64,000 bases of DNA, taken from positions 744,001-808,000 of the forward strand of contig NZ_JADDXU010000002.1 of assembly GCF_015163075.1 (NCBI RefSeq), given 5' to 3'. Origin of the DNA: Streptomyces justiciae. Lineage in GTDB: Bacteria > Actinomycetota > Actinomycetes > Streptomycetales > Streptomycetaceae. Below, in pieces: positions 9,788-64,000 of this stretch (positions are counted from its first letter, which is position 1; each line of letters begins with the position of its first letter). Below the pieces are notes generated by a model. It saw nothing but the letters and a program-made list of their open reading frames with translations. It made no database searches and had not been told where the DNA came from. Position numbers and translations under genes: made by a program.

Positions 9788-9819
9788 GGCAGCAGCCTCG
9801 CCGCCGGGGGCGGGTCGGG

Positions 9820-9863: not shown

Positions 9864-9895
9864 TCGCTGTCAGTGGCGGCTGGCACGATGACGCA

Positions 9896-44545: not shown

Positions 44546-44555
44546 GACCTCTCCC

Positions 44556-48514: not shown

Positions 48515-48649
48515 CCCCGCGTCTCCTCCCCGTAGCCCTCCCGAACACCAACTATCACAGAACGTTGCCCAGCCGACGGGTGCTTCAGGCAGAGCATCAA
48601 AATGAGTGCACCTGGCGTTCACCAGTTCCTGACGACTGATCAACTCCGG

Positions 48650-48677
48650 TTGGCGAAAGCCCAGTCGGGGGTATGAC
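48650..48677 (+). promoter_or_regulatory. possible sigma-70-like promoter of the CHAT/ubiquitin-like operon
   Basis: TTGGCG (48650-48655), 16 bases, then TATGAC (48672-48677), lies 45 bases before the CHAT ATG at 48723, in the 208-bp gap between the divergent conflict operons. It is a weak sequence match only. Confidence 0.3.
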
Positions 48678-48722
48678 CGGGGCCGGTACAGTCGGAGCAC
48701 CTGAGGCTGGGGGGAGCGGCAC

Positions 48723-49598
48723 ATGGCGGCACTGACGGCGGGGCAGTTGCAGCGGGACGGGGTGCTGCGGGTGCTCGCGGAGCTGTACGCCGACCCGCTG
48801 AGCGCCGAGCTGCTGCTGCGCGGGCTGGGTGCCGATCTGACCCGGTTGCCGCCCTTCGGGGGTTCCCAGGCACCGCTCGGTCACTGGTTCCGGATCTGTC
48901 TGACGATCGAGCACGGGGCGTTCGGCTTCACGTTGGAGGACCTCCTCCGGGCGGCGCACCGGGACTTCCCGACCAACGACGTGCTGGGCCGGTTCGCGAA
49001 GCCGCAGACGCCGGACGGATCGCCGGACGGCCGGCTGACCGTGCTGTGCCTGCTCGCGGGCCCCCGGGAGGCGTCCCAGCTCCAGCTGCGGCACGAGTAC
49101 CGCACCATCGAGGAGGCCGCCCGGCGCGGCCGTCGCCGCGTCCTCGACATCCGGCTGTCGGCCGCGACCCGGCGCCGCGACCTGATCCCGGCGCTCACCG
49201 AGCACAAGCCGGACGTCCTCCACTACGGCGGGCACGGCTCCGCCGACGGCGCTCTGCTGCTGGAGGGGGACGACGGCTCGGTCGCGCCGGTGCGCGCGGA
49301 GGCGCTCGGCGCGGTCCTGGAGGCGGTGGGCGGGGTCCCGGTCGCCGTCCTCAACGCCTGCCATCTGGGCCGGTACCTGGACGTCGTCAGACCCTACGTA
49401 GGCGAGGTCATCGGCTCCCCCGCGAAGCTGGACGACGACGACGCGCTCACGTTCTGCCAGGACTACTACGCGGCCCTCGCCCTCGGCGAGTCCTGGGAGG
49501 GCGCCTTCAAACAGGCCCGAGCAGGCGTGAGCCTCGGCCGCCCCGGACGACCGGACCTGCGACGCGAGGTGGGGTTCCGGGAGGGCGGGGCGGTATGA
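48723..49598 (+). CDS. EAD1-CHAT caspase-like protease
   Basis: A 291-residue protein. The N-terminal ~90 residues fit Effector-Associated Domain 1, a death-fold-like adaptor: a helical pattern with GFTLEDLLRAAHRDFPTN. The C-terminal CHAT (caspase HetF-associated with TPRs) domain (about 105-280) has the catalytic dyad: His171 in HYGGHG and Cys213 in NACHLG. It is predicted to be a soluble Cys protease activated by assembly through EAD1. It is the first gene of the rightward operon. The 48-bp repeat begins inside its final codons. A GGAG site supports the ATG. Confidence 0.88.
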   Translation: MAALTAGQLQRDGVLRVLAELYADPLSAELLLRGLGADLTRLPPFGGSQAPLGHWFRICLTIEHGAFGFTLEDLLRAAHRDFPTNDVLGRFAKPQTPDGSPDGRLTVLCLLAGPREASQLQLRHEYRTIEEAARRGRRRVLDIRLSAATRRRDLIPALTEHKPDVLHYGGHGSADGALLLEGDDGSVAPVRAEALGAVLEAVGGVPVAVLNACHLGRYLDVVRPYVGEVIGSPAKLDDDDALTFCQDYYAALALGESWEGAFKQARAGVSLGRPGRPDLRREVGFREGGAV

Positions 49599-49718
49599 CG
49601 GGGCGGGGCGCGGAAGGCGGGGTTTCGGGAGGGCGACGCGGCGTGGCGGGGCAGCGCGCGGAACTTGGGGGGCCGGTCGGGCGACGCGGTGTAACGGGAC
49701 AGCACGCGCGAGGACATC
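49575..49718. repeat. 48-bp tandem repeat copying the CHAT gene 3' end
   Basis: Imperfect 48-bp units start at 49575, 49623 and 49671. The first contains the CHAT stop codon (49596-49598); the later copies keep the GGGCGACGCGG-type core. Together with the 53-bp array that follows, this fills most of the 266-bp gap before the zinc-finger gene. No other feature was seen there. Confidence 0.75.
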
Positions 49719-49760
49719 ACCGTACGACCGGGCCGTTCGCCCGGACGGGCGGCGACGCAG

Positions 49761-49884
49761 GAGCGAGCAACGGTCCCCGAGCGGGCGGCCCCTCCAGAAG
49801 GGCGGCCGCGCATGAGTGAGCAGCGGTCCCCGACCCGGCGGTCCCTCCGGAAGGGCGGCGCCGTATGAGTGAGCAGCGGCCCCG
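49761..49884. repeat. 53-bp tandem repeat duplicating the zinc-finger gene start
   Basis: Units start at 49761, 49814 and 49867 (partial). The ATGAGTGAGCAGCGG start of the downstream gene (49865) has an upstream twin at 49812. As 53 is not a multiple of three, the twin ATG is in another frame and acts as a decoy start. Confidence 0.8.
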
Positions 49885-50614
49885 TACCGTGAGTGTCCAT
49901 GTGCCCGCCGGGGTGAACGTCGCCGAGCGGCGGCGGCGTAGTCAGGAGCGGGAGCGGGCGGAGGCCGGGGTGCGGGACGCGGCCGAGGGTGGGCCGAGTC
50001 CGGCGGCGTACGACTTCCTGCTCGGGCAGGCCGGCGGGCGCCGCGAGGCGGTCGACGTGCCGCAGCCGGACGGCGAGCCCGGCGAGGAGGTCACCGTCGT
50101 CACCTCCCAGTTGCTGCGCAAGCTCGGCTCGGCCGGGACCACCTGCCCGGTCTGCCACCACTCCTTCCGGCTGGGCGAGCAGATCTCCATCGAGCGCGCC
50201 GACGCGGGCCCCGGTGTCGTCCTCAAGCACCGCAGCCGCCGCCTGGACTGCCTCAACCCCGAGGCGGGCGAGCAGTCCTCCGCGTCGGCCGAGCTGTTCC
50301 ACCAGGGCCTCGACGAGGCCAATCCCCCGCCGCCGGAGCTGAACACCGTCCGGCTGCGTCGTGGACATCCCCTGCTCCGACTCCACCCGGGCCCGGGCGA
50401 CGGGGCGCCGACCCGGCACCGCTGCTGGGTGTGCGGGCACACCTTCCGGCCGGACGAGATGGTCATCCACTGCACCTGCGCACCCGACGCACCGAACTGC
50501 GCGAGCGCCGTCCACCGCGACCCCGACCACGGGCTGGTCTGCTACGACGACTGGAAGGCCCAGCATCCCGGAGTGCCGTGCCTCATGCTCAACTCCCCGC
50601 GGGACACCCGGTGA
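49865..50614 (+). CDS. protein with two treble-clef/RING-like zinc sites (candidate E3 or adaptor)
   Basis: A 249-residue protein. The first zinc site is CPVCHHSFRLGE (Cys94, Cys97) with a distal DCLNP Cys. The second is CWVCGHTFRPDE (Cys187, Cys190), followed by HCTC, NCASAVH and VCYDDW, a cross-braced Cys/His pattern like RING or other treble-clef fingers. Such fingers recruit E2 enzymes in eukaryotes. The gene lies between the CHAT protease and the E1 and overlaps the E1 start (GTGA), so an E3-like or substrate-adaptor role is inferred. The ATG at 49865 is preferred to the duplicate ATG at 49812. Confidence 0.7.
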   Translation: MSEQRPRTVSVHVPAGVNVAERRRRSQERERAEAGVRDAAEGGPSPAAYDFLLGQAGGRREAVDVPQPDGEPGEEVTVVTSQLLRKLGSAGTTCPVCHHSFRLGEQISIERADAGPGVVLKHRSRRLDCLNPEAGEQSSASAELFHQGLDEANPPPPELNTVRLRRGHPLLRLHPGPGDGAPTRHRCWVCGHTFRPDEMVIHCTCAPDAPNCASAVHRDPDHGLVCYDDWKAQHPGVPCLMLNSPRDTR

Positions 50615-51702
50615 CCGGCGACCGGTTCGCGCGGCACGCGCTGATCCCCGGCTGGGACCAGAAGCGGCTGGCCGACGCCACGGTCGTCCTCGCGGGCGCC
50701 GGGGCACTCGGCAACACCGTCGCCCAGACGCTGGCGTTGGCGGGCCTCGGCCGGCTGGTGGTGTGCGATCCGGACACGGTCGCGGTGAGCAACCTCAGCC
50801 GCTGCCCGCTGTTCCGCGCGGCGGACGTGGGCCGGCCGAAGGCGCAGGTGCTGGCCGGGGCGCTGGCGGACCTCGCGCCCGGCACGATCGTGGACGCCCG
50901 TGAGGCGCCGCATGTCTCCGGGACGGGGCTCGCCGAACTGCGGGACGCCGACCTGGTGGTGAGCGCACTGGACAGCCGGGCCGCCCGGATCTCCCTGGCC
51001 GGGCGGTGCACGCTCGCCGGGACCGGCATGCTCGACGGCGGCACGCACGCGTGGGGCGGCGAGGTCTCCTGGTACCCGCCCGGCGGACGCTGCCGGGCCT
51101 GCGGTCTCGGCCCGGCGGAGCGCGCGGTGCAGGACGACCCGTGGTCGTGCGCCGCGCCCGATCCGGCCGCCGAGGTGGGTGCCTCGGCTCCGGTGTCGGC
51201 GCTGGTCGGCGCGTGGCTCGCCGACTTCGCCGTACGACTGCTGCTGGGACTGTCCGTGCCGGACGCGCCGTTGCGCGTCGACGCCGCCGGGTTCGCCGTA
51301 CCGCTGTCCGGCGCCCCGTCGCCCGAGCTGCCCGACCCGGACTGCCCGCTGCACGAACGGCTCCCCGCGGCCGTCCCGGTGCTGCCGCTGGACCACGAGG
51401 CCACGGTGGCCGACCTGTTGGACCACGTCGACGTGCACGAAGAGCCGCTCGCCTGGGCAGGATTCAGCAGGCCGGTGCGGCGGCGGGCGGCGGTGCGCGC
51501 CGTCACCACCCGGCTGCGGTCCGCGCCCGCCTCGGCGCGGCTGAGCGCACTGGGGGTGGCGCCGCGTGAAGTACTGCCCGTGGCCCGACGGGACGGGTCG
51601 GGGCTGCGGTACGTCGAGTTGGCCGCCCTCCAGGAGGAACGGCAGGGCATACCGGGCGACTTGACCGAGGCACGGCGCGCGACGACGGAGGGTGTCCTGT
51701 GA
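50611..51702 (+). CDS. ThiF/E1-like ubiquitin-activating-type enzyme
   Basis: A 363-residue adenylating enzyme. The Rossmann loop is GAGALGN (29-35), the ATP-binding motif is DPDTVAVSNLSR (53-64) with Asp53 and Arg64, Lys77 follows and SALDSRAAR (118-126) closes the fold. A zinc pair CRAC (161-164) with Cys180 and Cys245 follows, one of which could carry the Ubl thioester. Many bacterial ThiF proteins serve sulfur carriers; adjacency to an E2 and JAB gene makes a conjugation role more likely here. GTGA overlaps link it to both neighbours. Confidence 0.85.
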   Translation: MTGDRFARHALIPGWDQKRLADATVVLAGAGALGNTVAQTLALAGLGRLVVCDPDTVAVSNLSRCPLFRAADVGRPKAQVLAGALADLAPGTIVDAREAPHVSGTGLAELRDADLVVSALDSRAARISLAGRCTLAGTGMLDGGTHAWGGEVSWYPPGGRCRACGLGPAERAVQDDPWSCAAPDPAAEVGASAPVSALVGAWLADFAVRLLLGLSVPDAPLRVDAAGFAVPLSGAPSPELPDPDCPLHERLPAAVPVLPLDHEATVADLLDHVDVHEEPLAWAGFSRPVRRRAAVRAVTTRLRSAPASARLSALGVAPREVLPVARRDGSGLRYVELAALQEERQGIPGDLTEARRATTEGVL

Positions 51703-53174
51703 GGGACGAGCTGTACAACGAGCTGGAGCGGGTGATCAACCCGCGCGAGGGCGAGATCATCCTGCGGACCATCGGCTTCCCGGAGAGCCGGCTGCCGTCC
51801 GTGGACGCGACCGCCCGGGTCTACTGGTCCGAGGCGCGTCGGCTGATCGACGCGGGCGTACTCGTGGACGGCGAGGCCCAGTTGGCGCGCGCCGTGCACA
51901 ACGAGTACCCGGGCAACGCGCTCTTCCGCGCCTCCGTCGAAGCGCTGGAACCGGTCACCGAGCCCCCGCAGCCGCCGCGCGCCGAGCAGCACCGCGTCCC
52001 GCCGCCCGCCGGTCCGACGCCCACCGCCGCTCCGCAGGCCGAACCGGAGCCGGACACCTACCCGACGCTGGTCTTCGTGTGCAGCACGCACCACGCGTCG
52101 TTCATCGAGGAGGTGCGCCGCCTCGACGCCCGCGCCGAGCTGTTCTTCGTCAGCCAGGGCGAGGAGGCCCAGGTCGGGCAGATCGCGATGTCGCTGACCC
52201 GCGAACTGACCTTGGGTCAGATCGAGGGTGTGCGCGGCGAGTTGATCGCGGCGGGCGCCCCGGCGGACCTGGAGATCCTCCAGGAGGTCTACGACCACCG
52301 GCCCTATCTGCTGGAGGCGCTCCGGGTCAACGGCCCCGACCAGCAGCCCTACGACCTGGCGGGCGTGCCGTCGATCACTCCGGTGCGGGACATCGCCGCC
52401 GCCGTGCTGGCGCACTACGAGGGCCGGATGGGGCGCCGCCCGCGCACCGTCGTCGACCATCAGCAGCCGGACGGCAGCTTCCGCCGTCTCGACCCCGCGC
52501 AGTCCCTGCACGAGGCGGGGGTGCGGGAGGGCGACACGCTCAACGTGTATCCCGAAGCGACCGCCGGGCACGCCGAGTTGCGGATGCAGGCGATCATCCG
52601 GGTCCGTGAGGAGATGCACCGCTACGCGGACCAGCACGAGGACTTCGAGATCGTCGACACCGACGACCCCGAGTTCCCCACCGACTACGAGATCCGCTTC
52701 AAGGGGCCGGGGCTGCGGCTCCCGGAACAGCAGAGCGAGAGCGCGCTGCCGCGTCCGGAGACGCAGGACAAGCACAACCTGCTGATCCTGCTGGGCCCGG
52801 ACTTCCCGCTGGTCGCCCCGGCCGTCTTCTGGCTGAGCCCGATCTTCCACCCGAACATCAAGGGACCCGACCCGCAGTACCCCGAGGCCGAAGGGGCGGT
52901 GTGCCTGGGCGTGCTGGCGCACTCCTGGCGCCCCGCCCTCGACTTCGGCCAACTGTGCCAGATGCTCGTGGACATGGCTGGGTATCGTAATTACGAGATC
53001 TCGGACAGTTTCAACCCAATCGCGGCATTGTGGGCCACGACGGAGGACGGTGCGGCCATGATCGAGGCCATCGGGGGCAAGCCGCCGGTGCCTGCCCCGC
53101 CGCCGGACGACGGCGCGCTCCGCGTCGGCGCGCTGCGGATACGGCGGACGGACGGGGCGGCCGATGGCACTTGA
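51699..53174 (+). CDS. EAD1-Ubl-E2 fusion (ubiquitin-conjugating-type enzyme)
   Basis: A 491-residue fusion. EAD1 spans 1 to about 75 (INPREGEIILRTIGFPESRLP and YPGNALF). An uncharacterised alpha/beta segment (about 115-205, TLVFVCSTHH) follows. A ubiquitin-like beta-grasp spans about 205-289 (ending REGDTLNVYPEATAG) and a C-terminal E2/UBC fold about 295-450. The E2 core has FHPNI (HPN at 384-386), the catalytic-position Cys402 in GAVCLGVL, and the Trp of HSWRP. The HPN-to-Cys gap is about 8 residues longer than usual. The Ubl is internal, with no free diglycine. The GTG overlaps the E1 stop. Confidence 0.87.
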   Translation: MRDELYNELERVINPREGEIILRTIGFPESRLPSVDATARVYWSEARRLIDAGVLVDGEAQLARAVHNEYPGNALFRASVEALEPVTEPPQPPRAEQHRVPPPAGPTPTAAPQAEPEPDTYPTLVFVCSTHHASFIEEVRRLDARAELFFVSQGEEAQVGQIAMSLTRELTLGQIEGVRGELIAAGAPADLEILQEVYDHRPYLLEALRVNGPDQQPYDLAGVPSITPVRDIAAAVLAHYEGRMGRRPRTVVDHQQPDGSFRRLDPAQSLHEAGVREGDTLNVYPEATAGHAELRMQAIIRVREEMHRYADQHEDFEIVDTDDPEFPTDYEIRFKGPGLRLPEQQSESALPRPETQDKHNLLILLGPDFPLVAPAVFWLSPIFHPNIKGPDPQYPEAEGAVCLGVLAHSWRPALDFGQLCQMLVDMAGYRNYEISDSFNPIAALWATTEDGAAMIEAIGGKPPVPAPPPDDGALRVGALRIRRTDGAADGT

Positions 53175-54231
53175 CATCGAGCTCTTCCAGGGCGAGTCAC
53201 GCCAACTGGTGCGCACCGAACCGCTGATCGCGCTGCTGAAGCCGGCCTTCGCGGCGGAGACGGCCCCCTTCAAGGGCCGGCCCCGCTTCGTGCTGATGCT
53301 GCGCAACGACCCCGGACCCGACACCTACGAGCCCGAGAGCTCCGAGACCCCTGGGGCCGACACGTACGAGGGAGATCTCCACCTCACCAATCTCCGCGCC
53401 GACTTCGGGTACATCCATGTCGCGATCCATATGGAGGGACGCGTGGTCTACCAGAAGCCCTACTCCGTCAACTCGCTCGTCGGCCCGGTGCTCGCCCGGC
53501 TGGCCCGGGAGATCTCCCCCGAGGAGCGCCAGTGGGCGTTCCGGATCGCCGGGCTGCCCTCGCCCGAGGACGGGGAGTCGGCGCAGCGGCTGCCCCCGGT
53601 GGTGGACGGCACGGACGACATCGACGTCTCCCGCTCCACCCGGCTGCCGTTCGGCATCCGCCCGGCGGCCGAGCCCGAGATCCCGCTGCTCGACCTGGCC
53701 GAGTACGGGGTGACGCTCAGCGACACCGGGGCGCCGGTGACCGTGCTGCTCGGCACCGGGGTGCAGCGCAGCATGATGGAGATGGAGCTGTCGACCGAGA
53801 TCGAGGAGGGCGGCTTCCTGGTCGGCCGGGCCTTCCGGCGGGCCGACGACCCCGCGCTGCACGCGGTGATCGTCGACGAGGTGCTGCCCGCCGAGCACTC
53901 GGGGGCCTCGCTGATGCACTTCACGTTCACCGGGGACTCGTTCCGCGCGATGAGCCGGACGCTCGGCGACCGCCAGCTCGTCGGCTGGTACCACACCCAT
54001 CTGTTCCAGACCGAGCGCACCATCGGCCTGTCCCGCACCGACATCGACCTGCACCGCGACACCTTCCGACGCCCCTGGCAGGTGGCCGCCCTGATCAACC
54101 TGACCTCGCGCCGACGGGTACTGACCTGCTACGCCTCCTCCGACGACTGGATGGCACCCTGTCCGATCCGGAACCTCGATGACGACCCTGACAGCCACCG
54201 CAGTACGCATCCTTCACTGGGCCATCACTGA
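53164..54231 (+). CDS. JAB/MPN (JAMM) metallopeptidase, deubiquitinase-like
   Basis: A 355-residue protein. The C-terminal JAMM domain (about 195-335) has Glu in EEGGFLVG (214-221), the zinc pair HTH (His277, His279), Ser290 and Asp293 in GLSRTDIDLH. The spacing between the second His and Ser is 10, slightly longer than the usual 7. The N-terminal ~180 residues (GESRQLVRTEPL...) are of unknown fold. It should cleave isopeptide or Ubl-processing bonds, removing or maturing the conjugate. It overlaps the E2 gene by 11 bp. Confidence 0.87.
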   Translation: MALDIELFQGESRQLVRTEPLIALLKPAFAAETAPFKGRPRFVLMLRNDPGPDTYEPESSETPGADTYEGDLHLTNLRADFGYIHVAIHMEGRVVYQKPYSVNSLVGPVLARLAREISPEERQWAFRIAGLPSPEDGESAQRLPPVVDGTDDIDVSRSTRLPFGIRPAAEPEIPLLDLAEYGVTLSDTGAPVTVLLGTGVQRSMMEMELSTEIEEGGFLVGRAFRRADDPALHAVIVDEVLPAEHSGASLMHFTFTGDSFRAMSRTLGDRQLVGWYHTHLFQTERTIGLSRTDIDLHRDTFRRPWQVAALINLTSRRRVLTCYASSDDWMAPCPIRNLDDDPDSHRSTHPSLGHH

Positions 54232-55081
54232 ACCGGCGCCCGACGGCACCCTGGTGCCGCCTCCGACCACCTCGGCGCGGCCGCCCGAGACCGACGACGA
54301 CCCGGTCGTCCTCCTCGAACGGCTGGCCCGGGTCACCGCGGCCCGGCTGCACCTGTCCGACCCGCCCCTCGGCGACCGCGGGCCGACGGGCCTGGAGCCG
54401 CTGATGGTCGCGGCCGCCCTGGCGCTACGGGACGATCCGCCGACGGCCCTGCTGGTGGCCGAGGGCGTGGGCGGCTCGGGCACCGTACGTGATCTGATGG
54501 CCCGTCACGGTCTCGTGGGGCGCGCCCTGTCGGCGACCCCGGTCAACGCCGAGCTGCGCACGGAACTGCTGCGCGCCTCGCCGCTGACGGCTCTCTTCGA
54601 CCACCCTCCGCCGGGCACGGAGGAGCGCTGCGGGCAGCTCCTCGACCGGTTCCTCGACCACACCGAGGGCAGACGCGCGGCGGTGGCGGGCCTCGCCGCA
54701 CCGCCGTCCTCGCCCGCCACCGCCCGTCACCGCGCGGCGCTGCTGCGCCGGTTCCGCTTCACCCCGGGGGAGAGAACAGTCGTGTACGAGGTGTACGAGA
54801 CGGCGCTGCTGCACCACGGCGGCCACTACCGCCGACTCACCGACGACGTACGGAAGTTGGCGCGCGACAGCGCGGCCCGGCTGCTCGCGGACGACGCCCG
54901 CGGCCAGTGGGCGCGGGCCACGCTCGACTGGTGGCAGCCCCTGGCCGTGCTGGCCCGGCGCCATCCCGACGAGCTGCGCCGCCGCCCGCTGCTGAGCGGC
55001 TACCGCATCGGCACGGAACTGCACCGCATCTACGGCCGGGTAAGGGAGTTCGAGGCGCTGCGCGAGGTGCTGGACCGATGA
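54179..55081 (+). CDS. hypothetical conflict-system accessory protein
   Basis: A 300-residue soluble helical protein, starting inside the JAB gene with a 53-bp overlap and ending at the AAA+ start (ATGA). A central Ala/Leu-rich segment (about 65-130, EGVGGSGTVRDLMARHGL) and a C-terminal helical region (about 205-300, YRRLTDDVRKLARDSAARLL) are visible. No known motif. Overlap at both ends shows it is an obligatory part of the operon; an adaptor between the JAB/E2 enzymes and the unfoldase is possible. Confidence 0.7.
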   Translation: MTTLTATAVRILHWAITEPAPDGTLVPPPTTSARPPETDDDPVVLLERLARVTAARLHLSDPPLGDRGPTGLEPLMVAAALALRDDPPTALLVAEGVGGSGTVRDLMARHGLVGRALSATPVNAELRTELLRASPLTALFDHPPPGTEERCGQLLDRFLDHTEGRRAAVAGLAAPPSSPATARHRAALLRRFRFTPGERTVVYEVYETALLHHGGHYRRLTDDVRKLARDSAARLLADDARGQWARATLDWWQPLAVLARRHPDELRRRPLLSGYRIGTELHRIYGRVREFEALREVLDR

Positions 55082-56943
55082 CCAGAGCGCTGCGCCTGGC
55101 CACCGCGGACCACGGCGACCGGATGGACCTGCTCGGCACCGCGGGCGACCGTCCGCTGCGGGAGGTGCTGGCCTCCTGCGAGGTATGGCTGCTCGACCCG
55201 CTGGACGAGGAGTTGCTGGACCGGCCCTGGTCGGACTTCGCCGCCGACATCCGGCTGCGGTCCGAACTCGCCCCGGGCACCTCGCTGTTCGCGCCCCCGG
55301 GAATCACGGCCGCCCCGGCGCCGACCTCGCTGACCAAGCCCCCCGCTCCCGGCGTCGAAGCGGCGCAGGAGCCCGAGCAGGCCGACCACCCGGACCGCAT
55401 CACCGACGCCCAGGCCGTCCGCCTCGCCTACTACCCGCACATCGAACGCGTGGCGTCCCTGCTGCGCAGCCGGCTGCCGGTGCTCGTCATCAGCGAGAAG
55501 CTGATCGTGACCCATCTGTGGGAGGAGATGGTCACGTTGGCCGAGTGCCGCGGCATCCGGCTCGACGACGACTCGCAGGAGGACGAGAGCGGCCGCGGCT
55601 CCGGTGACCCGGTCGGGGACATGAACGGCGCGTCGATGAACACCCGCCAGCGCCGCCTGGCCCGACTACGCGCCCAGCTGGAGGAGTTGAAGGAGGGCGA
55701 CGTCATCGTCCTCACCCACCTCGACCTGCTGGCCGGCAGCGCCGACATCGGCCGGCACGCCGAGGCGCGCGAACTGGTCGAGCTGCTCTACGCCTTCCCC
55801 GACCAGCTGGTCCTCGCCTTCGCCGACCCGACCCTGCCGTTGCCGGACGTGCTGGCCGAGCGGTTCAGCGCCCGCGTCACCCTCAGCGGTCTGCCACCGA
55901 AGGTGAAGACACCGGAGACCGAGGAGACACTCCTGGGGGCCGCCCTCGTGACCCGGGAGGAGGCGGAGACCTTCGAGGGGTTCCAGCCGCGCGAGTTCTA
56001 CAAGCACGTCGCCGGCATGAACCCCGTACGACTGCGCCAGGCCATGCGGTACGCGCACGAGAAGCACCGGACGCAGCCGAAGCGGGCCACCCAACAGGAT
56101 CTGCGGGAGACGCTGTTGACGTTCAAGGCGCAGCAGTCCTCGCACTTCGAGGTCCCCAACGTCACGCTGAACGACATCGGCGGCTACGACGAGGTCAAGG
56201 ACGAGATCCGGCAGACGCTCGCCATCATCAGCGGTGCGCAGAGCCTGCCCGACGACATGGAGGAGGTGCGCTCCGAACTCGTCCCGCGCGGCATCATCTT
56301 CTACGGCCCGCCCGGCACCGGTAAGACGCTCTTCGCGAAGGCCATCGCCAACGGCATGAACGCCACCATCCAGGTGGTGTCCGGGCCCGAGGTCACCGAC
56401 ATGTACGTCGGTGAGAGCGAGCGCAAGGTGCGGGAGATCTTCGCCTCCGCGCGGCGCAGCGCGCCCTCCGTCATCGTCTTCGACGAGATCGACGCGATCA
56501 CCATGGAGCGCAGCAACCGCCCCGACGGCGGCAGCCGGGCCGGCAACAGCGTGGTCGCGCAGATCCTCACCGAGATGGACGGCTTCCGGCCCGAGGTGCC
56601 GATGCTGGTGATCGGCACGACGAACCGCATCGACATCATCGACAAGGCGCTGCTGCGGCCGAGCCGGTTCCGCTCCATCGCCATCTCGCTGCCCGACGTC
56701 ACCGCCCGCCGCGCCATCCTGCGTCACCACGCGGGCCGCTACCACATCTCCCTGGACGACGAGGTGCTGGAGCTGATCGCCGAGGCGACCGCGGGCCGCA
56801 ACGGCGACGAGCTGCGCTCGCTGATGCGGGACGCGTTCGTCGGCCGCCACATGCACGGCATCGAACCGGACGCCCGCCGGCTGGGCTGGCTGGTGGGACG
56901 GCTCCAGCAGGGCCGCCTGGAAATGATCTCGGAGCGCCGATGA
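55078..56943 (+). CDS. Cdc48/FtsH-like AAA+ ATPase (unfoldase)
   Basis: A 621-residue AAA+ ATPase. An N-terminal ~340 residues hold no metallopeptidase or membrane helix; the stretch around 115-260 looks like a decayed AAA or P-loop fold. The C-terminal AAA module (about 365-600) has Walker A GPPGTGKT (410-417), Walker B VFDEID (Asp469, Glu470), sensor TTNR and Arg fingers in LRPSRFRS. The sequence is closest to the FtsH/Cdc48 clade, but the FtsH zinc protease (HEXXH) is absent, suggesting a substrate segregase or a chaperone for the CHAT protease. ATGA overlap with MoxR. Confidence 0.87.
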   Translation: MTRALRLATADHGDRMDLLGTAGDRPLREVLASCEVWLLDPLDEELLDRPWSDFAADIRLRSELAPGTSLFAPPGITAAPAPTSLTKPPAPGVEAAQEPEQADHPDRITDAQAVRLAYYPHIERVASLLRSRLPVLVISEKLIVTHLWEEMVTLAECRGIRLDDDSQEDESGRGSGDPVGDMNGASMNTRQRRLARLRAQLEELKEGDVIVLTHLDLLAGSADIGRHAEARELVELLYAFPDQLVLAFADPTLPLPDVLAERFSARVTLSGLPPKVKTPETEETLLGAALVTREEAETFEGFQPREFYKHVAGMNPVRLRQAMRYAHEKHRTQPKRATQQDLRETLLTFKAQQSSHFEVPNVTLNDIGGYDEVKDEIRQTLAIISGAQSLPDDMEEVRSELVPRGIIFYGPPGTGKTLFAKAIANGMNATIQVVSGPEVTDMYVGESERKVREIFASARRSAPSVIVFDEIDAITMERSNRPDGGSRAGNSVVAQILTEMDGFRPEVPMLVIGTTNRIDIIDKALLRPSRFRSIAISLPDVTARRAILRHHAGRYHISLDDEVLELIAEATAGRNGDELRSLMRDAFVGRHMHGIEPDARRLGWLVGRLQQGRLEMISERR

Positions 56944-58094: not shown

Positions 58095-58148
58095 CGCACA
58101 CCTCCGGGCGCCCGCGCCCGGCCGCGGAATCAGGGGGACACCAACTCT

Positions 58149-58964
58149 ATGTGCAATCCGCGCAGGGTCCGTGTCGAAGCCACCAGGGAAGTCGTCGAGG
58201 CGTGGGAACTGGCCCTGGAGCGGCGTGCCAGCGCCAGCGACTCCGTGGTCAGCGAGCTGGAGGTGCGCCACCCCTTCGGCGGCACGCTGGGGCAGGCCAC
58301 CCGGCAGGTCTTCGAGGCCACGCTCACCACGGCCGAGGGCTGGCGCGCCGAAGGAGGCGGCCATGTCCTGGAGTTGACGGACGGCCGGGTCCGCTACGAC
58401 CCGGCCACCGGTGAACTCGTCGTCACCGCCCGTCTGGAGGACCAGGTCACCGTGGAGGGCCACGCCGCCGAGACGCTGCGCGGCACAGTCCGCGAACAGG
58501 CGACCGGCAGCGGTGAAGGGCGGTACTACGCCGACGGGTTCGCCGGACGCACCCGTGAGGTGGCCGAGCGCGAGGCGCAGGCGGTCGCCGAGGCCGACGC
58601 CGTGCGCCGGGCGCGTGAGCTGGCGGGGCGGCTGCGGGTGCAGGCGAGCCGCGAGTCGACCACCGCGGCCGCCGCGGCGGAGGCCCGGCTCCAGCGGGCC
58701 GCCGACGACGACGCGCGGGCCCGGCTGGCGGAGGAGCGCGAGCGGGTCCGGGCCGATCTGGAGGCCCGCAACCGGGAGCGCATCACCCGGCTCGGCCAGG
58801 ACGGGCTGCGGGCCGTCAACGGGGTGCTGGCCACGGCCTACCAGCGGGCGCTGCTCGACTTCGCCCGGCAGCACGGCGCCACCGGCATCCGGCAGGAGGA
58901 GTCCGACGGCGGCATCGACATCGAGTTCGAGCTCGACATCGACGTCGACGGGATGGCGAACTGA
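58149..58964 (+). CDS. ternary-system accessory protein (coiled coil)
   Basis: A 271-residue soluble protein. It opens MCNPRRVRVEATREVVEAW, then a beta-rich ~65-residue core (about 75-140). A long Ala/Arg/Glu-rich coiled coil follows (about 140-235), and the end is a very acidic DGGIDIEFELDIDVDG tail. It resembles accessory families seen next to FtsH/MoxR conflict ATPases, but no exact family can be named. A 34-bp repeat starts right after its stop. Confidence 0.65.
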   Translation: MCNPRRVRVEATREVVEAWELALERRASASDSVVSELEVRHPFGGTLGQATRQVFEATLTTAEGWRAEGGGHVLELTDGRVRYDPATGELVVTARLEDQVTVEGHAAETLRGTVREQATGSGEGRYYADGFAGRTREVAEREAQAVAEADAVRRARELAGRLRVQASRESTTAAAAAEARLQRAADDDARARLAEERERVRADLEARNRERITRLGQDGLRAVNGVLATAYQRALLDFARQHGATGIRQEESDGGIDIEFELDIDVDGMAN

Positions 58965-58976
58965 ACTCCGGACCCG

Positions 58977-59105
58977 CTCGGAGGCTTCGGCGGCGAGGGG
59001 AGTCCGGCTGGAGATCGGTTCCGGCGGCGAGGGGCGTCCCGCTGGAGATCGGTTCCGGCGGCGAGGGGCGTCCCGCTGGAGATCGGCTTCGGCGGCGTGG
59101 GGAAC
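58977..59105. repeat. 34-bp tandem repeat between accessory genes
   Basis: GGAGATCGG(T/C)TTCGGCGGCG-type units, period 34 bp, at about 58977 (diverged), 59011, 59045 and 59079. It fills the gap between the stop at 58964 and the ribosome-binding site of the gene at 59130. Confidence 0.82.
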
Positions 59106-59129
59106 TGATCCCGGAGGGAGAACTGATCG

Positions 59130-59411
59130 ATGCGGGTGCGGGTGCGGTTCCGGTTCAACACGGACACCGGAGAGGTCGAGCTGTTCCAGGTGGACGACAT
59201 CGGTACCGGCTCCGGTCCCGACCACGACGCCGAACACGACCGGATCAGCGCCGAGTTGGGGCAGGTCCTGGCGCGCAGACCGGACGTCGAGGAGATCTCG
59301 CCGTTCGACGAGCCGCCGCTGTGGCGGCACGACCCGACACCGCAGACCCCGGCGCACGACCGGGACGAGGAGACCGAGGGTCCCGAGCCGGGTGAGCGGG
59401 AGACCACATGA
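59130..59411 (+). CDS. small accessory protein
   Basis: A 93-residue protein whose first ~50 residues form a beta-rich strand pair (MRVRVRFRFNTDTGEVELFQVDD); the rest is an acidic, disordered tail. GGAGGGAG provides the start site. It overlaps the next gene (ATGA). It looks like a small partner of the MoxR module; the function is unknown. Confidence 0.65.
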   Translation: MRVRVRFRFNTDTGEVELFQVDDIGTGSGPDHDAEHDRISAELGQVLARRPDVEEISPFDEPPLWRHDPTPQTPAHDRDEETEGPEPGERETT

Positions 59412-60109
59412 GCCGGCGCACCCGGCTGCTGCTCAAGGCCGCGCGCTGCTACGCCGAGGCCCAGGCGCACACCGAGGCCGCCCGCTGCTACGACCTCCTC
59501 GGCTGGCAGTGGTCGGCGGCCGACGCCTACCAACGCGCCGGCGACCTGGAGCACGCCGCGCGCACCTACCGGCAGGCCGGCCACCCGGAGCAGGCGGCCC
59601 GCTGCTACCGGCTCCTCGGCCGCCCCGAACTCGCCGCCCGCTGCTGGCAGGAGCGCGGCCGCAGACTGGAAGCCGCCTGGGAGCTCCTCCTGGCCGGTGA
59701 CATCGCCCCCGCCCGCAGGCTCCTCGCCGCCGCGGACACCGTCGGCAAGGGCCCGCAGCAGCTCCGCCTCGAACTCGCCCGCGCCCTCGCCGACCGTCTC
59801 GGCGGCGGCCCGCCGGGCCCCCTCCTCGACCTCTTCCCGCGCGTGGAGGCCCGTCTGCCCGCCCTGGCCTCGCGCACCGAGCGGCGTCTGATGCTGGACT
59901 GGGGCGTCGAGGCCGCGGACCGCGTCGAACGGTTCGACTGGGGGGCACGGCTGTTCCGTGCGGCCTACGACGGCCAGGGCGGCGGCGACGTGCTGAACCG
60001 CTGGCGGGAGTGGGCCGGCGAGCGGCTCGGCTCCGCCGCCTGGCTGCCGTCCGGGCCGCCCGTGGAGGCGGGCGTCGCGGCGGAGGCCGGCCGGGCGGAA
60101 GGTCCCTGA
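59408..60109 (+). CDS. TPR-like repeat protein
   Basis: A 233-residue protein. The first ~100 residues hold tetratricopeptide-like repeats of about 18-20 residues (ARCYAEAQAHTEAARCYDLLG, then DAYQRAGDLEHAARTYRQAG, each shown as a description of its position near 12-32 and 38-57). The rest is helical. Such proteins scaffold multi-protein complexes. It overlaps the small gene before it and precedes the bpX-like gene by 4 bp. Confidence 0.75.
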   Translation: MSRRTRLLLKAARCYAEAQAHTEAARCYDLLGWQWSAADAYQRAGDLEHAARTYRQAGHPEQAARCYRLLGRPELAARCWQERGRRLEAAWELLLAGDIAPARRLLAAADTVGKGPQQLRLELARALADRLGGGPPGPLLDLFPRVEARLPALASRTERRLMLDWGVEAADRVERFDWGARLFRAAYDGQGGGDVLNRWREWAGERLGSAAWLPSGPPVEAGVAAEAGRAEGP

Positions 60110-60113
60110 TTCC

Positions 60114-61856
60114 ATGGAACGCAGCGAAAGCCCTCTGCGCCGGCTGCTGAACCGCATCACGCCGGAGAACGCGCCCTCCTCCGGCACTCCGCCGACGCCG
60201 ATCGTGGCCCGCCCCGCCCCGCGCGGAGCCCCGCCACCGGCCCCACCGACCCCGCAGCCGCCTCCGGCCCGCCCCCAGCCCCGGCCGCCGCACCAGTCCA
60301 ACGGTGCCCACGACCACGGCGTCCCCTTCAGCGTGCGCCCGGCACGTCCGCCGGAGGAGGAGCCGCCGATCCCGGTGCCGCCGGTGTCGTACACCTCCTC
60401 CCCCGTCGTCGACTGGCGGGTCGCCGCCCGTTTCCCCGCCCCGCACCGGATTCTGGGCGCGATCGAGGCGCTGCACCGGGCCGGGGCGGCGGAGTGGAGC
60501 TGTCACGTCGAGCCGGGCGGCGGGGCCGTCTGGCTGCTCAGCGTCATCGGCCCGGCCGTCGGCACCGACCTCCTGACACTGCACGGCGGGGAGCCCCGGC
60601 CGGTGCTCGGGCACGGCGCACTCGCCGAACGCAGCGGCGGGCCGCACCAGTTGGCAGAGGTGCTGTCCTGGCCCCGGCTCGACACGGTGGACCTGGTCTC
60701 CCGCCTCCCCCTCTCCCCACCGGACCGCACCACCCACCCCACGCTGCACGTCCTCGCGGCACCCCAACTCCTGTCCTCCGTGGCCCGCCAGGCTCTGACC
60801 TTCGGTGTGGAGGTGTCGACGCTCGCGGTGCGGGCCCGCCCGTTGGACAGCCCGGAGACACCTCAACGCGAGGCGACAGTCCTGTTGTTGACATCGCCCG
60901 ACGAGATCCCGCACGCGCTGCTCGTGGCCCTCTCCGCGCTTCCCCGCACCTCGGTGTGCCGCCCGGTGGCCGCCTGCGAACGCCTGCTGCTGGACGTACG
61001 ACTGCGCCCTCCCGTCGACGACGCGCTGCTGTACTCCCCGGTACCGCAAGGAGAGTTGTGGTTGATCGGGGACGTCGAGGAGTGGCCACCGCTAAGGCTG
61101 GAGCCGCTCGGCACGCCCTCACCGATACCGGCCGAACTGATCGGCGTGGCCCCCGAACCACCCTCCGCCTCCTACGTGTTGCCGGAGGGGGCACCCTCGG
61201 CGGAGATACGGCTGATGGCCGACGTGCACGCGCCCACCGCGGTCGACGCGGTCCTGCTGCACGACGACGAACTCCCGTTGCTACGGCGGTATCTGCCGGG
61301 CCGCCCCCTGGGCGAGGCGGGCTTCCTGCTGCCCGGCCCCGGCCATCATCTGCTCCTGGAACCGGCCGGGTTGGCCCGCGACCTGCCCTTCGGGGTGCCC
61401 TTGTGCCGGATCGGTCCCGGCAGCCTGTTCCTGGAGTCCGGGCACACGCTCACGCCCCCGCTGCCGCCCGCGGCCCGCGCCCGCCTGTTCGGCCTCGACG
61501 GCACGTCGGCGGTCGTCTGCTGGCACGGCGGCCGGCACCGCTTCCCGCTCGCCCCGATGGTGCCCCTGTGGGCCCTGTGGGCCCCACCGGACCCGGTCGC
61601 GGTCTCGACGGGCCTGTCCAAGGCGGGCCGCGAACTCCTCGACGCCCTGGACGCGCTGGCCGGCGCGACGGGCACGCCCCAGGGGCCGGCCCCGACACCT
61701 CACCAGGACCCCGGCGAAGCGCTCGAACGGGCCACGCGACTAAGGGCGTTGGGCGACCACGAGGCCGCCGCCGAGGCGTACCGTTCAGCGGGCGACCCAC
61801 TGGAGGCGGCCCGCCTGTTCGAACAGGCGGCGCTGGAGGGGACGGAGGACCGGTGA
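60114..61856 (+). CDS. bpX-like accessory protein of a MoxR/beta-propeller system
   Basis: A 580-residue protein. A Pro-rich tether (about 20-95) precedes two alpha/beta modules: one about 100-260 (PAPHRILGAIEALHRAGAAEW) and one about 370-500. The second has the pattern of bpX domains that accompany MoxR-vWA-beta-propeller systems (GFLLPGPGHHLLLEPAGLARDLPFG, residues about 401-425 in description only). The C-terminus has one TPR-like repeat. The bpX number cannot be assigned; bpX6 is the best guess. The 39-bp repeat begins at its stop codon. Confidence 0.62.
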   Translation: MERSESPLRRLLNRITPENAPSSGTPPTPIVARPAPRGAPPPAPPTPQPPPARPQPRPPHQSNGAHDHGVPFSVRPARPPEEEPPIPVPPVSYTSSPVVDWRVAARFPAPHRILGAIEALHRAGAAEWSCHVEPGGGAVWLLSVIGPAVGTDLLTLHGGEPRPVLGHGALAERSGGPHQLAEVLSWPRLDTVDLVSRLPLSPPDRTTHPTLHVLAAPQLLSSVARQALTFGVEVSTLAVRARPLDSPETPQREATVLLLTSPDEIPHALLVALSALPRTSVCRPVAACERLLLDVRLRPPVDDALLYSPVPQGELWLIGDVEEWPPLRLEPLGTPSPIPAELIGVAPEPPSASYVLPEGAPSAEIRLMADVHAPTAVDAVLLHDDELPLLRRYLPGRPLGEAGFLLPGPGHHLLLEPAGLARDLPFGVPLCRIGPGSLFLESGHTLTPPLPPAARARLFGLDGTSAVVCWHGGRHRFPLAPMVPLWALWAPPDPVAVSTGLSKAGRELLDALDALAGATGTPQGPAPTPHQDPGEALERATRLRALGDHEAAAEAYRSAGDPLEAARLFEQAALEGTEDR

Positions 61857-61929
61857 CGGCAGCACGTTTCGGCGCCGAGCGCCTCACAGTGGTGACGGCA
61901 GCGCTCTTCGGCGCCGAGCGCCTCTCAGG
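61852..61929. repeat. 39-bp direct duplication copying the bpX-like gene stop
   Basis: GGTGACGGCAGC(A/G)C-type units at 61852-61890 and 61891-61929. The first contains the TGA stop (61854-61856). The rest of the 307-bp gap 61857-62163 holds no convincing gene. An open frame from GTG 61853 to TGA 62167 overlaps both neighbours as GTGA, but its Arg/Pro/Ala composition and weak third-position GC bias argue against coding. Confidence 0.75.
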
Positions 61930-62163
61930 AAGCCGTACTGGAGCAGGAGCGGTAGGCCCCCATGCCGAGCGGCCCGCAGCGAGCCGTACACGTCCGCCGT
62001 GGCGAACGGCTGCCCGGCCGGCGTGGAGCGGGGCCGGTGCCGCAGATCTCGGCGGCCGGCCACCCGCGGGAAGCCGCCCGACCCACGGGCCCAGCCCCAC
62101 CGCTCCGGACGCCGTCGCCTCGCCGTCAATCCCCCATCGCCGACCCGGCGCATCGGAGTGCCC

Positions 62164-64000
62164 GTGACCGCCGCCCCCGGGACCACGGCCCCGCCCGGCC
62201 CCCGCCGGCTCCTCACCCTCACCGGTACCGACCCCTGCACCGGCCTCTCCCGTGACGGCACTGCCTTCGTGCATCTCACCGACCGCACCCTGAGTTGTCG
62301 CGACGACACCGGGCGGGTGTTGTGGTCGGCGGCCGGTGAGGGGCTGCCGGCGGCCGTGGCGTGGGGCCCGGACGGCGGTGAGGTGTTCGTGCTGCGGGCC
62401 GGGCGGGTCGAGGTGTACGACGGGGACAGCGGGGTCCTCGCCGACGACGGGTTCCCGGTGCCGGCGGGCGCGGACACGCTCACCGTGTCGCCCGACGGAC
62501 TGTGGCTGGCCTGCGCCGGCGACGGGGTGCTGGTGCACCACCGGGGCACGCTCACCTCGACCCCGCTGCCGACCGTGGACCCGGTGATCGCCCTGGCCTG
62601 GGACCCGCAGGGCCGCCAGCTGTGCCTGGCCACCGCCACCGCGCTCCAGCTGTGGAGCGTCTCCCCGGTCCGGATGGACTTCGCCCCGTGCACCGGCCGT
62701 ACCGGCATCACCGCGCTCGCCTGGTCACCGGACCGGGACGTGCTCGCCTTCGCCGACGCGACCGGCCTGCACCTGGTCGACCGGGCCACCGGCCGCCCCC
62801 TCGCCGACGCGTCGGTCTCCGGTGCCGTCGTGGGGCTGGGCTTCAGCCGGACCGGACGGTACGTGGTGGCCGCCACGGACCAGGAGGCGCTGCTCGTCCT
62901 GGACCGCGCGCTGGAGCGGGTCGCGACACTGCCCGCCCGCGCTACGTCACCGCGGGACCTGAGCGTGTCGGCGACGGGCCGGGTGCTCGTCACGGCCGGC
63001 GCGGGCACGGAGCTGTGGGAGCTGCCGGACGCGGCCCCGTATCGCGCGGAGCGCCGTGTGGGCGTAATGCTGCGCGGCTGGGCCGCGGCGATGTGCCGGT
63101 CCGTGGGCAGCTCGCTGCCGGCGCTGCGGGACCGGGCGCCACGGATCACCGGGCAGACGCTCCTGAACGACGGCGGCGACGGCCTGTGGGCCCCAGCGGT
63201 CGCGGCGTCGACACGCGACGGCCGATGGCTGCTGGAGACCGAACCGGGTTCGCTGGCCGCACTGCACACCGGCCGTAACTACGCCCACGGACAGCCGAGC
63301 GCACCCACCGGCCGTAACGACGCCCACCGACAGCCGAGCACACCCACCGGCCGTAACGACGCCCACCGACAGCCGAGCGCACCCACCGGCCGTAACGACG
63401 CCCACCGACAGCCGAGCGCACCCACCGGCCGAGCCGACACCCACCGACAGATCACCACGGCCACCGGCCCCGGCGGCGCCCACGACCTCGAACTCTCCCC
63501 CACCGCCCCCGATCTGCTGGCGTGCGCCTCGCGCGAAGGACAAGCCGGGCTGACCGTCCTCGACCTGGCCAGCGGTGAGGCCCGGGCCGTGCTGGAGGGC
63601 GGTCAAGGTCCCGCCTGGTGCCCGGCTCCGACCACCGACGGATCGGCGACGCTCGTCGTGCCCGAACCCGGACCCGCACCGACCCACCTGTTCGTCCACG
63701 TCCTGGACGCCCGCGGCACCCCGGCACAACAACGCAAGAGCCTGCATCTGCCGCAGGGCACCGGCCGCCCCTGCTGGTCACCGGACGGTACGACGCTGGC
63801 GGCCGGCACCCTGGGCGCGGTCATGCTGTGGCACATGCCGCGCCGGGAGCGGGCCCGTCGACTGCCCCTGCCCTCCGGCGCGTTCGCCACCCGCGTCGCC
63901 TGGTCGCCGGACGGCAGCCGGCTGGCCGCGACGCCGCCCGCCGGTCAGGGGTCGTTGGTGGTGTGGTCGACGCTCACCTGGCGCGTGCAGCGCGAGTTCG
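62164..64000 (+). CDS. WD40 beta-propeller protein (3' end beyond the window)
   Basis: An open frame of over 610 codons from GTG 62164 running off the right edge. It has WD40-type blades throughout (ALAWSPDRDVLAFADATGLHL, description of about residues 181-200; VAWSPDGSRLAATPP near the end), so it is probably a seven-blade propeller or more. An in-frame 39-bp repeat (13 residues, TGRNDAHRQPSAP) is inserted around residues 369-433. Propellers of this class read bound partners for MoxR conflict ATPases. The C-terminus is unknown. Confidence 0.85.
   Translation, partial: MTAAPGTTAPPGPRRLLTLTGTDPCTGLSRDGTAFVHLTDRTLSCRDDTGRVLWSAAGEGLPAAVAWGPDGGEVFVLRAGRVEVYDGDSGVLADDGFPVPAGADTLTVSPDGLWLACAGDGVLVHHRGTLTSTPLPTVDPVIALAWDPQGRQLCLATATALQLWSVSPVRMDFAPCTGRTGITALAWSPDRDVLAFADATGLHLVDRATGRPLADASVSGAVVGLGFSRTGRYVVAATDQEALLVLDRALERVATLPARATSPRDLSVSATGRVLVTAGAGTELWELPDAAPYRAERRVGVMLRGWAAAMCRSVGSSLPALRDRAPRITGQTLLNDGGDGLWAPAVAASTRDGRWLLETEPGSLAALHTGRNYAHGQPSAPTGRNDAHRQPSTPTGRNDAHRQPSAPTGRNDAHRQPSAPTGRADTHRQITTATGPGGAHDLELSPTAPDLLACASREGQAGLTVLDLASGEARAVLEGGQGPAWCPAPTTDGSATLVVPEPGPAPTHLFVHVLDARGTPAQQRKSLHLPQGTGRPCWSPDGTTLAAGTLGAVMLWHMPRRERARRLPLPSGAFATRVAWSPDGSRLAATPPAGQGSLVVWSTLTWRVQREF
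63268..63462. repeat. in-frame 39-bp tandem repeat (5 copies) inside the WD40 gene
   Basis: Five units of exactly 39 bp at 63268, 63307, 63346, 63385 and 63424 (the last diverged) encode TGRNDAHRQPSAP-type 13-residue repeats. Adjacent units are nearly identical, so the array is young or kept uniform. It would form a flexible loop between blades. Confidence 0.9.

What the first reader, a model, noticed from the sequence alone, without database searches (positions are those of the whole stretch)
48723..64000. Candidate ubiquitin-like conjugation and caspase-like conflict operon
One co-directional, mostly overlapping operon encodes an EAD1-CHAT protease, a double-zinc-finger protein, an E1-like enzyme, an EAD1-Ubl-E2 with HPN and Cys402, a JAB metallopeptidase, a Cdc48/FtsH-like unfoldase, MoxR and a WD40 propeller. 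E1, E2, candidate E3, candidate deubiquitinase and unfoldase together mirror the eukaryotic ubiquitin-proteasome logic, wired to a Cys protease. Families of this kind were predicted in computational surveys of NTP-dependent conflict systems; I know of no experimental study of this exact combination. The anti-phage or self-surveillance role is inference.
Basis: partly seen in the sequence, partly recalled or inferred. Interest (0 to 1): 0.93.

Follow-up and report, generated by a model that had tools for sequence, protein, structure and literature searches.

The report
Bacterial ubiquitin-like tagging and protease operon
This Streptomyces-type gene cluster encodes a ubiquitin-like tagging set together with a caspase-like protease; it is a member of a predicted defence-system type described in 2020, and comparison with relatives shows the glycine after which its tag protein is likely cut free.

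Summary
In detail: the operon is real, intact and longer than stated. It is not a new kind. Nearly every module matches the "FtsH-containing MoxR-vWA ternary system, complex variant" predicted by Kaur et al. 2020 (eLife e52696), down to Pfam families named for it. It also missed a head-to-head operon (42696-48724, minus strand) with a DO-GTPase2, a GAP1-like protein and two membrane proteins. That operon accompanies the Ubl operon in 14 of the 31 loci L008-L038, all within one E1 clade. Ala289-Gly290 at the end of the ubiquitin-like domain is invariant in 44 of 44 aligned proteins. All 46 free-standing relatives of that domain carry the same Ala-Gly, and 32 stop exactly there. Catalytic residues of E1, E2, JAB and CHAT are kept in nearly all aligned relatives. 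Conjugation, protease recruitment and anti-phage function remain inference; I found no experimental work in the held library.

The parts
42696..43274 (-). small membrane protein; one TM helix with an Asp invariant in 14 of 14 aligned proteins (AGWLFADLFLVLF); stator-like only at motif level
   Evidence: no stator match
43271..44545 (-). two-TM protein with long helical (coiled-coil-like) tail, conserved partner of the above
44556..46391 (-). GAP1-like protein (GAP1-N2 matched in 1 of 11 family members, 0.0016; no match for the window's own copy)
46388..48724 (-). kinase-like N-terminal part (weak matches), zinc-ribbon-like CPxC and DO-GTPase2 (Pfam DO-GTPase2 in 8 of 11 family members, best 2.2e-9; window's own copy 0.051); true start uncertain
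48723..49598 (+). EAD1-CHAT caspase-like protease (His171, Cys213; which His is catalytic is recalled)
   Evidence: Pfam; His167 and His171 kept in 17 of 17, Cys213 in 18 of 18 aligned CHATs
49865..50614 (+). double zinc-binding protein, candidate RING-type E3
   Evidence: eight Cys/His of the second cluster 26 of 26; alignment; fold not proven
50611..51702 (+). E1-like adenylating enzyme; Zn ligands C161, C164, C245, H248; candidate catalytic Cys180
   Evidence: Pfam ThiF; conservation
51699..53174 (+). EAD1-YukD_N-Ubl-E2 pro-protein; predicted cut after Gly290; E2 His384-Pro-Asn and Cys402
52563..52568 (+). codons of Ala289-Gly290, the predicted mature C terminus of the modifier
53164..54231 (+). 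fvmJAB_N-JAB metallopeptidase, JAMM residues E214, H277, H279, S290, D293
54179..55081 (+). fvmX1 (FtsH ternary system domain X1)
   Evidence: Pfam PF19998 1.9e-93
55078..56943 (+). FtsH/Cdc48-like AAA ATPase, no peptidase domain found
   Evidence: Pfam; NCBIfam; Walker residues
56940..58094 (+). MoxR AAA+ ATPase (bpMoxR)
   Evidence: Pfam PF20030 4.2e-65
58149..58964 (+). fvmX2
   Evidence: Pfam PF20000 2.6e-112
59130..59411 (+). fvmX3
   Evidence: Pfam PF19999 1.3e-30
59408..60109 (+). TPR-like protein (no Pfam match over a cut-off), relatives in 25 loci, window included
60114..61856 (+). fvmX7
   Evidence: Pfam PF20005 5.5e-106
62164..64000 (+). WD40 beta-propeller with C-terminal degenerate vWA; continues to 65454 outside the window; start uncertain. 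Further out, on the minus strand: radical-SAM-modified peptide ending Cys-Gly (65496-65708) and AmmeMemoSam-type radical SAM enzyme (65705-66739)

Best explanation
This is an FtsH-type MoxR-vWA ternary system in which a JAB peptidase likely cuts an EAD1-carrying ubiquitin-like modifier free from its own E2 after Gly290, so that E1, E2 and a RING-like protein would attach it to targets and EAD1 pairing would bring the CHAT protease to them. Shown by sequence: the gene set, the catalytic residues, the invariant Ala289-Gly290 at the Ubl-E2 border, free-standing relatives of the Ubl that end at that same Ala-Gly, and EAD1 found in this genome only on the modifier and on the CHAT protease. Inferred: that JAB does the cutting, that the modifier is conjugated, that EAD1 pairs with EAD1, that the FtsH/Cdc48-like and MoxR-vWA-propeller ATPases remodel the tagged complex, that the divergent GTPase/GAP1-like membrane module gates the response, and that the outcome is defence or self-killing after infection.
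Against: No experiment. One of 30 fusions (L018, Saprospiraceae) has Ala-Ala at the site and one second-copy E2 (L020) lacks the Cys. Most free-standing Ubls (32 of 46) need no trimming, so JAB must have another job there, such as deconjugation. These 46 come mostly from related planctomycetes and are not independent. Three Ubl copies without an attached E2 have lost the Ala-Gly (L011, L016 twice). The RING fold is not supported by a PDB profile match; CHAT is only just over its Pfam cut-off, and the YukD and JAB models fall under theirs in the window's own proteins. HPN conservation in the genome set is circular, because the scan pattern contained FHPN.
Confidence: 0.62

Rival explanations
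1. The Ubl stays attached to its E2 and acts as a built-in regulator or docking domain; Ala-Gly is a structural linker and the real substrate of E1 is another protein, such as the 70-residue radical-SAM peptide that ends in Cys-Gly.
For: All 120 listed homologues (of 354 found) of that peptide end in Cys-Gly, so it too offers a C-terminal Gly; three Ubl copies without Ala-Gly exist.
Against: Free-standing Ubls end at the same Ala-Gly with no E2 attached; E1 and E2 occur in the planctomycete and Chloroflexota loci L039-L086, where no such peptide was found in the stretches held.
Confidence: 0.12
2. The E1/JAB pair is a sulfur-carrier or cofactor pathway.
For: The E1 resembles ThiF/MoeB in general.
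Against: No ThiF/MoeB equivalog cut-off is reached; an HPN/Cys E2, a Zn-rich partner and a protease are co-encoded; the system is sporadic (PF20006 in 1 of 150 genus and 1 of 396 phylum genomes, the window's own both times).
Confidence: 0.03
3. The system is a developmental or self-surveillance proteolytic switch of multicellular bacteria rather than anti-phage defence.
For: Kaur et al. report enrichment in multicellular bacteria (Table 1 passage: 63 of 79 FtsH-system organisms); Cdc48-like and MoxR ATPases suit housekeeping remodelling (recalled).
Against: Very patchy presence and exchangeable CHAT/TIR effectors look like conflict genes.
Confidence: 0.25

Closest known systems
FtsH-containing MoxR-vWA ternary system, complex variant (Kaur, Burroughs, Iyer, Aravind 2020, eLife e52696)
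   Same: beta-propeller-vWA, MoxR, FtsH-type AAA, JAB, E1, RING-type protein, EAD1-Ubl-E2, EAD1-caspase effector, alpha-helical proteins, AmmeMemo-type radical SAM with peptide (parts 7 and 8 of section 3 read)
   Different: The passages read do not mention the glycine at the Ubl end (the only 'glycine' hit concerns EACC1) and do not couple a DO-GTPase/GAP1 operon to FtsH systems; figures and source tables were not available
DO-GTPase / GAP1-N2 systems (Kaur 2020)
   Same: Zn-ribbon GTPase of the DO-GTPase2 type with a downstream GAP1-like gene and membrane proteins in the divergent operon
   Different: Here head-to-head with the Ubl operon; GAP1-N2 match weak (1 of 11 members); the other two genes of the operon are the membrane proteins, with no FNIII, tubulin or HSP70 match in those scanned
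Bil (BilABCD) and Bub systems; CBASS Cap2 (E1-E2)
   Same: bacterial E1/E2/JAB-type conjugation in or near immunity operons
   Different: Those are described with other gene sets, without an EAD1-CHAT arm or MoxR-vWA (partly recalled; passages seen). PADLOC E1-E2 and BilD models match only the adenylation region of this E1
TERNS3 systems with Ubl conjugation (Kaur 2021, eLife e70394)
   Same: E1 with EAD1-fused Ubl and EAD1-fused E2 (passage)
   Different: Ubl and E2 are each fused to their own EAD1 there, and 'FtsH' does not occur in the text

Membership tests
FtsH-containing MoxR-vWA ternary system | MoxR AAA+ protein | tested here: met
   bpMoxR 4.2e-65
FtsH-containing MoxR-vWA ternary system | vWA protein, divergent, with N-terminal beta-propeller | tested here: met
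   WD40 by Pfam. The C-terminal region is homologous to that of the relative L026, whose AlphaFold model (pLDDT 78.4) matches ArnAB (4.4e-6) and vWA domains of Rpn10, CMG2, NorD and TFIIH (2.5e-5 to 1.9e-4; TM-scores modest, about 0.4 by query); the window's own copy was not modelled and no Pfam vWA match was found in it
FtsH-containing MoxR-vWA ternary system | FtsH-type AAA with active second domain | tested here: met
   AAA 8.2e-42; Walker A and B residues kept in 25-26 of 25-26
FtsH-containing MoxR-vWA ternary system | inactive N-terminal AAA copy in the same protein | tested here: inconclusive
   hhalign of the two halves is collinear but not significant, E 0.62
FtsH-containing MoxR-vWA ternary system | E1, JAB, and EAD1-Ubl-E2 fusion | tested here: met
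   JAB by fvmJAB_N and JAMM residues, the catalytic JAB model being under its cut-off
FtsH-containing MoxR-vWA ternary system | RING-type E3 | tested here: inconclusive
   Cross-brace-like Cys/His pattern in 26 of 26; no significant PDB profile match
FtsH-containing MoxR-vWA ternary system | EAD1-caspase-like effector | tested here: met
   His and Cys in 17 of 17 and 18 of 18 aligned
FtsH-containing MoxR-vWA ternary system | radical SAM and FtsH-associated peptide | tested here: met
   PF20007 5.5e-38, AmmeMemoSam_rS 234 bits over a cut-off of 220, 257 bases from the vWA gene
FtsH-containing MoxR-vWA ternary system | zincin-like metallopeptidase of the peptide system | tested here: inconclusive
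   None among the seven downstream ORFs scanned; other flanking ORFs were not scanned and the genome was not searched for one
DO-GTPase / GAP1-N2 system | DO-GTPase | tested here: met
   DO-GTPase2 in 8 of 11 family members, best 2.2e-9; the window's own copy gives only 0.051
DO-GTPase / GAP1-N2 system | GAP1 with GAP1-N2 domain | tested here: inconclusive
   1 of 11 members, 0.0016
Flagellar/Zorya-type stator | sequence or fold match to MotB/ZorB | tested here: inconclusive
   Invariant TM Asp 14 of 14 but no stator hit in PDB, PADLOC or Pfam

The most novel reading that the evidence does not exclude
The real unit is a two-switch machine: a membrane-linked GTPase/GAP1-like module, divergently transcribed and conserved across Streptomycetaceae, Streptosporangiaceae, Pseudonocardiaceae and Micromonosporaceae, controls release of a large (290-residue) death-adaptor-tagged ubiquitin-like modifier from its own E2 at Ala-Gly. 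Conjugation of that modifier turns any target into a docking site for a CHAT protease or a TIR enzyme: a bacterial inflammasome-like platform built by ubiquitin-like tagging.
Probability: 0.25. Interest if true: 0.85.

Novelty: new member of a known kind. Interest (0 to 1): 0.55.

Why it matters
If the model holds, bacteria use a ubiquitin-like tag that carries its own protein-protein docking domain to call in a caspase-like protease, joining two hallmarks of animal immunity in one operon. The passages of the 2020 prediction that I read name no cut site; the Ala289-Gly290 site gives a defined cut product, a defined tag end for mass spectrometry and clean point mutants. The linked GTPase module suggests where the infection signal might enter.

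Tried and rejected
Tried: sulfur-carrier reading (no equivalog cut-off reached). Anti-phage labels from PADLOC for the ten proteins given: general E1-E2 and BilD matches on the E1, IetA- and TRIP13-like matches on the AAA protein, and weak matches elsewhere such as MkoA on the kinase-like part, so no known defence system is named. A stator (MotA/MotB, Zorya) reading of the two membrane proteins was considered because of the invariant Asp in a TM helix. PDB profile searches, first with untrimmed and then with trimmed alignments, gave only helical or unrelated chains, and PADLOC and Pfam gave no stator for the one-TM protein, so it is kept only as a remark. C-terminal Gly in 11 other operon protein families was looked for and is not consistent. 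An HbYX proteasome-docking tail on the AAA protein was looked for by eye in the C-termini listed and is not a shared feature. Foldseek and VIA-align lists for the E2 protein are filled by its E2 domain, so the Ubl fold was not tested by structure; it rests on Pfam YukD and fvmYukDl_N. Literature searches returned no experimental study; Burroughs et al. 2011 on prokaryotic RING domains is not held. Papers: Kaur 2020, parts 7 and 8 of section 3 (of 21 parts) plus passages; Kaur 2021, Iyer 2006, PMC11354881 and PMC13373217, passages only; Gong 2025, Ye 2026, Chambers 2024 and Hor 2024 seen only as citations.
Full report
What is there. The window is positions 744001-808000 of contig 12 of a 10.45-Mb assembly. 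The closest database E2 protein, 99% identical, is labelled Streptomyces justiciae; the genus of the window is inferred from such matches. Gene calling and Pfam give one plus-strand operon from 48723 to 65454. In order it encodes EAD1-CHAT, a double zinc protein, E1, EAD1-YukD_N-Ubl-E2, JAB, fvmX1, an FtsH/Cdc48-like AAA, MoxR, fvmX2, fvmX3, a TPR-like protein, fvmX7 and WD40-vWA. Seven of 12 junctions overlap by 4-53 bases. It stopped at the window edge, missed five genes inside the operon and did not look at the opposite strand.

What it is. Kaur et al. 2020 describe the complex variant of their FtsH-containing ternary system as: a beta-propeller fused to a divergent vWA, MoxR, an FtsH-type AAA, separate JAB, E1 and RING-type genes, a protein joining Ubl and E2 with an N-terminal EAD1, an EAD1-fused caspase-like effector, several alpha-helical proteins, and often a peptide with an AmmeMemo-type radical SAM enzyme. 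Six of the nine features tested here are met and three are inconclusive (inactive first AAA copy, RING fold, zincin peptidase); see the membership rows. The vWA test needed a relative. The window's vWA region is homologous to the C-terminus of the L026 protein, whose model (mean pLDDT 78.4) matches vWA domains, among them NorD in complex with NorQ. Just past the window, on the minus strand, lie the peptide (Pfam PF20007, 5.5e-38) and the radical SAM enzyme (TIGR04337 above cut-off). I asked 13 relatives for the radical SAM gene. In these and the window the gap between the vWA and radical SAM genes is 220-316 bases. Two more (L015, L017) have fitting coordinates but an unconfirmed contig; in L014 and L037 the hit's place does not fit; L008 has only a weak hit elsewhere, and its contig ends about 1.1 kb past the stretch held. 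The peptide ends in Cys-Gly in all 15 loci where it was found (8 of them used to build the profile) and in the window, and in 120 of 120 listed homologues (of 354).

The cut site. In 44 aligned E2-type proteins (window plus 43 of 56 homologues) the columns with every row filled that never vary are W43, D214, L270, A289, G290 and G460; nine further columns, all in the E2 region and with one row missing, are also invariant. A289-G290 lies between the Ubl's last strand (ends at 285) and the first E2 helix (starts at 291). The 50 listed structural matches to known E2s begin at residues 287-296. A genome scan gave 79 loci, the best 80 hits of 264. In the 30 fused relatives taken from L008-L037, Ala is kept in 30 and Gly in 29; the exception is a Saprospiraceae bacterium with Ala-Ala. 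ORFs that did not span both halves, such as those of L026 and L038, were left out of that count. The decisive comparison comes from planctomycete, Chloroflexota and related loci (L039-L086), where Ubl and E2 are separate genes. There 46 free-standing Ubl ORFs were found in 48 loci: all 46 have the Ala-Gly, 32 stop directly after it and 14 have tails of 1-11 residues, as expected of precursors that need trimming. Many of these are close relatives of one another, so the number of independent cases is smaller. Frankia QA3 has a free EAD1-Ubl that also stops at ...EATAG. A linker-only role for the Ala-Gly is therefore unlikely. Three Ubl copies that are not joined to an E2 lack it (L011 minus strand, two in L016).

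Catalytic residues. JAMM residues E214, H277, H279, S290 and D293 are kept in 29 of 29 L008-L038 sequences and 47 of 47 others. In E1, G29, R64, K77, D121 and C180 are kept wherever aligned (28-29 and 47-48 sequences), next to four zinc ligands. C180 as the catalytic Cys is my inference, from its position relative to the zinc pairs and recalled ThiF biochemistry. CHAT His167 and His171 are kept in 17 of 17 and Cys213 in 18 of 18 aligned. Cys402 is kept in 29 of 30 fusions. Among separate E2s, 49 of 67 have the Cys; in many planctomycete loci a second E2 hit follows, which may be a UEV-like partner. HPN counts are not independent evidence, because the scan pattern contained FHPN.

The recruiting arm. 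EAD1 has two matches in the whole genome, on the CHAT protease and on the modifier. Of 23 EAD1 ORFs without an E2 (L033 left out because it is masked), 18 carry CHAT, 2 carry TIR (L016, L018) and 3 have neither (L012, L028, L038). L012 looks frame-disturbed after EAD1. EAD1 is thus kept while the effector changes, as the homotypic-adaptor idea predicts. Binding itself is not shown.

The divergent operon. Four minus-strand genes at 42696-48724 encode a one-TM protein, a two-TM helical protein, a GAP1-like protein and a DO-GTPase2. The GTPase and GAP1-like genes lie upstream of the Ubl operon, on the opposite strand, in 14 of 31 loci L008-L038; all four genes are present in 13, and the contig stretch of L019 ends early. 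A GTPase hit alone, without the other three genes, also turned up in L038 and L054. The E1 tree places all 15 GTPase-linked rows, the window included, in one 18-row group (support 94/94). The other three rows there are L010, whose contig starts too close, and L027 and L035, which show only E1 and E2 among the searched genes. Counted strictly the label needs 3 changes on the tree, and well-supported branches force at least 2, so one origin with losses fits but is not proven; shuffled labels need 11.8 on average and 0 of 500 come as low. Identity to the window within the GAP1-like family falls to 24%, so the linkage is old. With the GAP1-like protein as query, 149 other genus members gave one weak partial hit (4e-6) and 395 other phylum genomes two weak hits; only the top 8 and top 3 candidates per genome were scored there. 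The parts of Kaur 2020 that I read name three systems coupled to ternary systems (peptide processing, DGR, DUF397) and not this one. Their figures and source data were not available, so I do not claim that the link is unpublished. The family names are weaker here: DO-GTPase2 in 8 of 11 members, GAP1-N2 in 1 of 11.

How it most likely works. JAB likely trims the pro-protein after Gly290, giving a 290-residue modifier with an EAD1 docking domain, and a free E2. E1 would activate Gly290, E2 Cys402 would carry it, and the RING-like protein would direct it to targets. EAD1 pairing would place CHAT on tagged targets. The FtsH/Cdc48-like and MoxR-vWA-propeller proteins would remodel or threshold the complex, and JAB could also reverse tagging. 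The release and recruitment ideas are those of Kaur et al.. The GTPase module would gate it from the membrane. Trigger, targets and outcome are unknown; defence is inferred from patchy presence (PF20006 in 1 of 150 and 1 of 396 genomes, PF20007 in 1 of 150) and exchangeable effectors.

Verdict. A real and intact member of a known, computationally predicted system, with no experimental study found in the held library. The added value is the pinned Ala-Gly site, the conserved divergent GTPase operon and the CHAT/TIR exchange.

Noticed in passing
L038:16259-17254: Frankia QA3 encodes a stand-alone EAD1-YukD_N-Ubl that stops at ...EATAG, with the E2 in another ORF (9326-10669); it may be a TERNS3-type arrangement.
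   Followed up: partly
L016:5449-6531 and L016:6569-7342: An acidobacterial locus has a Ubl fused to a TIR-like domain (by eye) without the Ala-Gly end, beside an EAD1-TIR protein; it could be a non-conjugatable decoy or direct effector.
   Followed up: no
L039-L086: Planctomycete and related loci often carry a second E2-like ORF; 18 of 67 stand-alone E2 hits lack the catalytic Cys, like eukaryotic UEV proteins.
   Followed up: partly
window 63268-63450: The WD40-vWA gene contains tandem repeats of a TGRNDAHRQPSAP-like unit between propeller parts.
   Followed up: no
window 42696-43274: One-TM protein whose helix carries an Asp invariant in 14 of 14 aligned proteins, recalling stator proteins; no homology found.
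   Followed up: yes
contig 12, 809496-809708 (just past the window): 70-residue radical-SAM peptide with an invariant Cys-Gly C terminus (120 of 120 listed homologues); what the enzyme does to it is unknown.
   Followed up: partly
L020:11727-13961: A second Ubl-E2 copy in Dactylosporangium keeps the Ala-Gly but has Gln in place of the E2 catalytic Cys.
   Followed up: no
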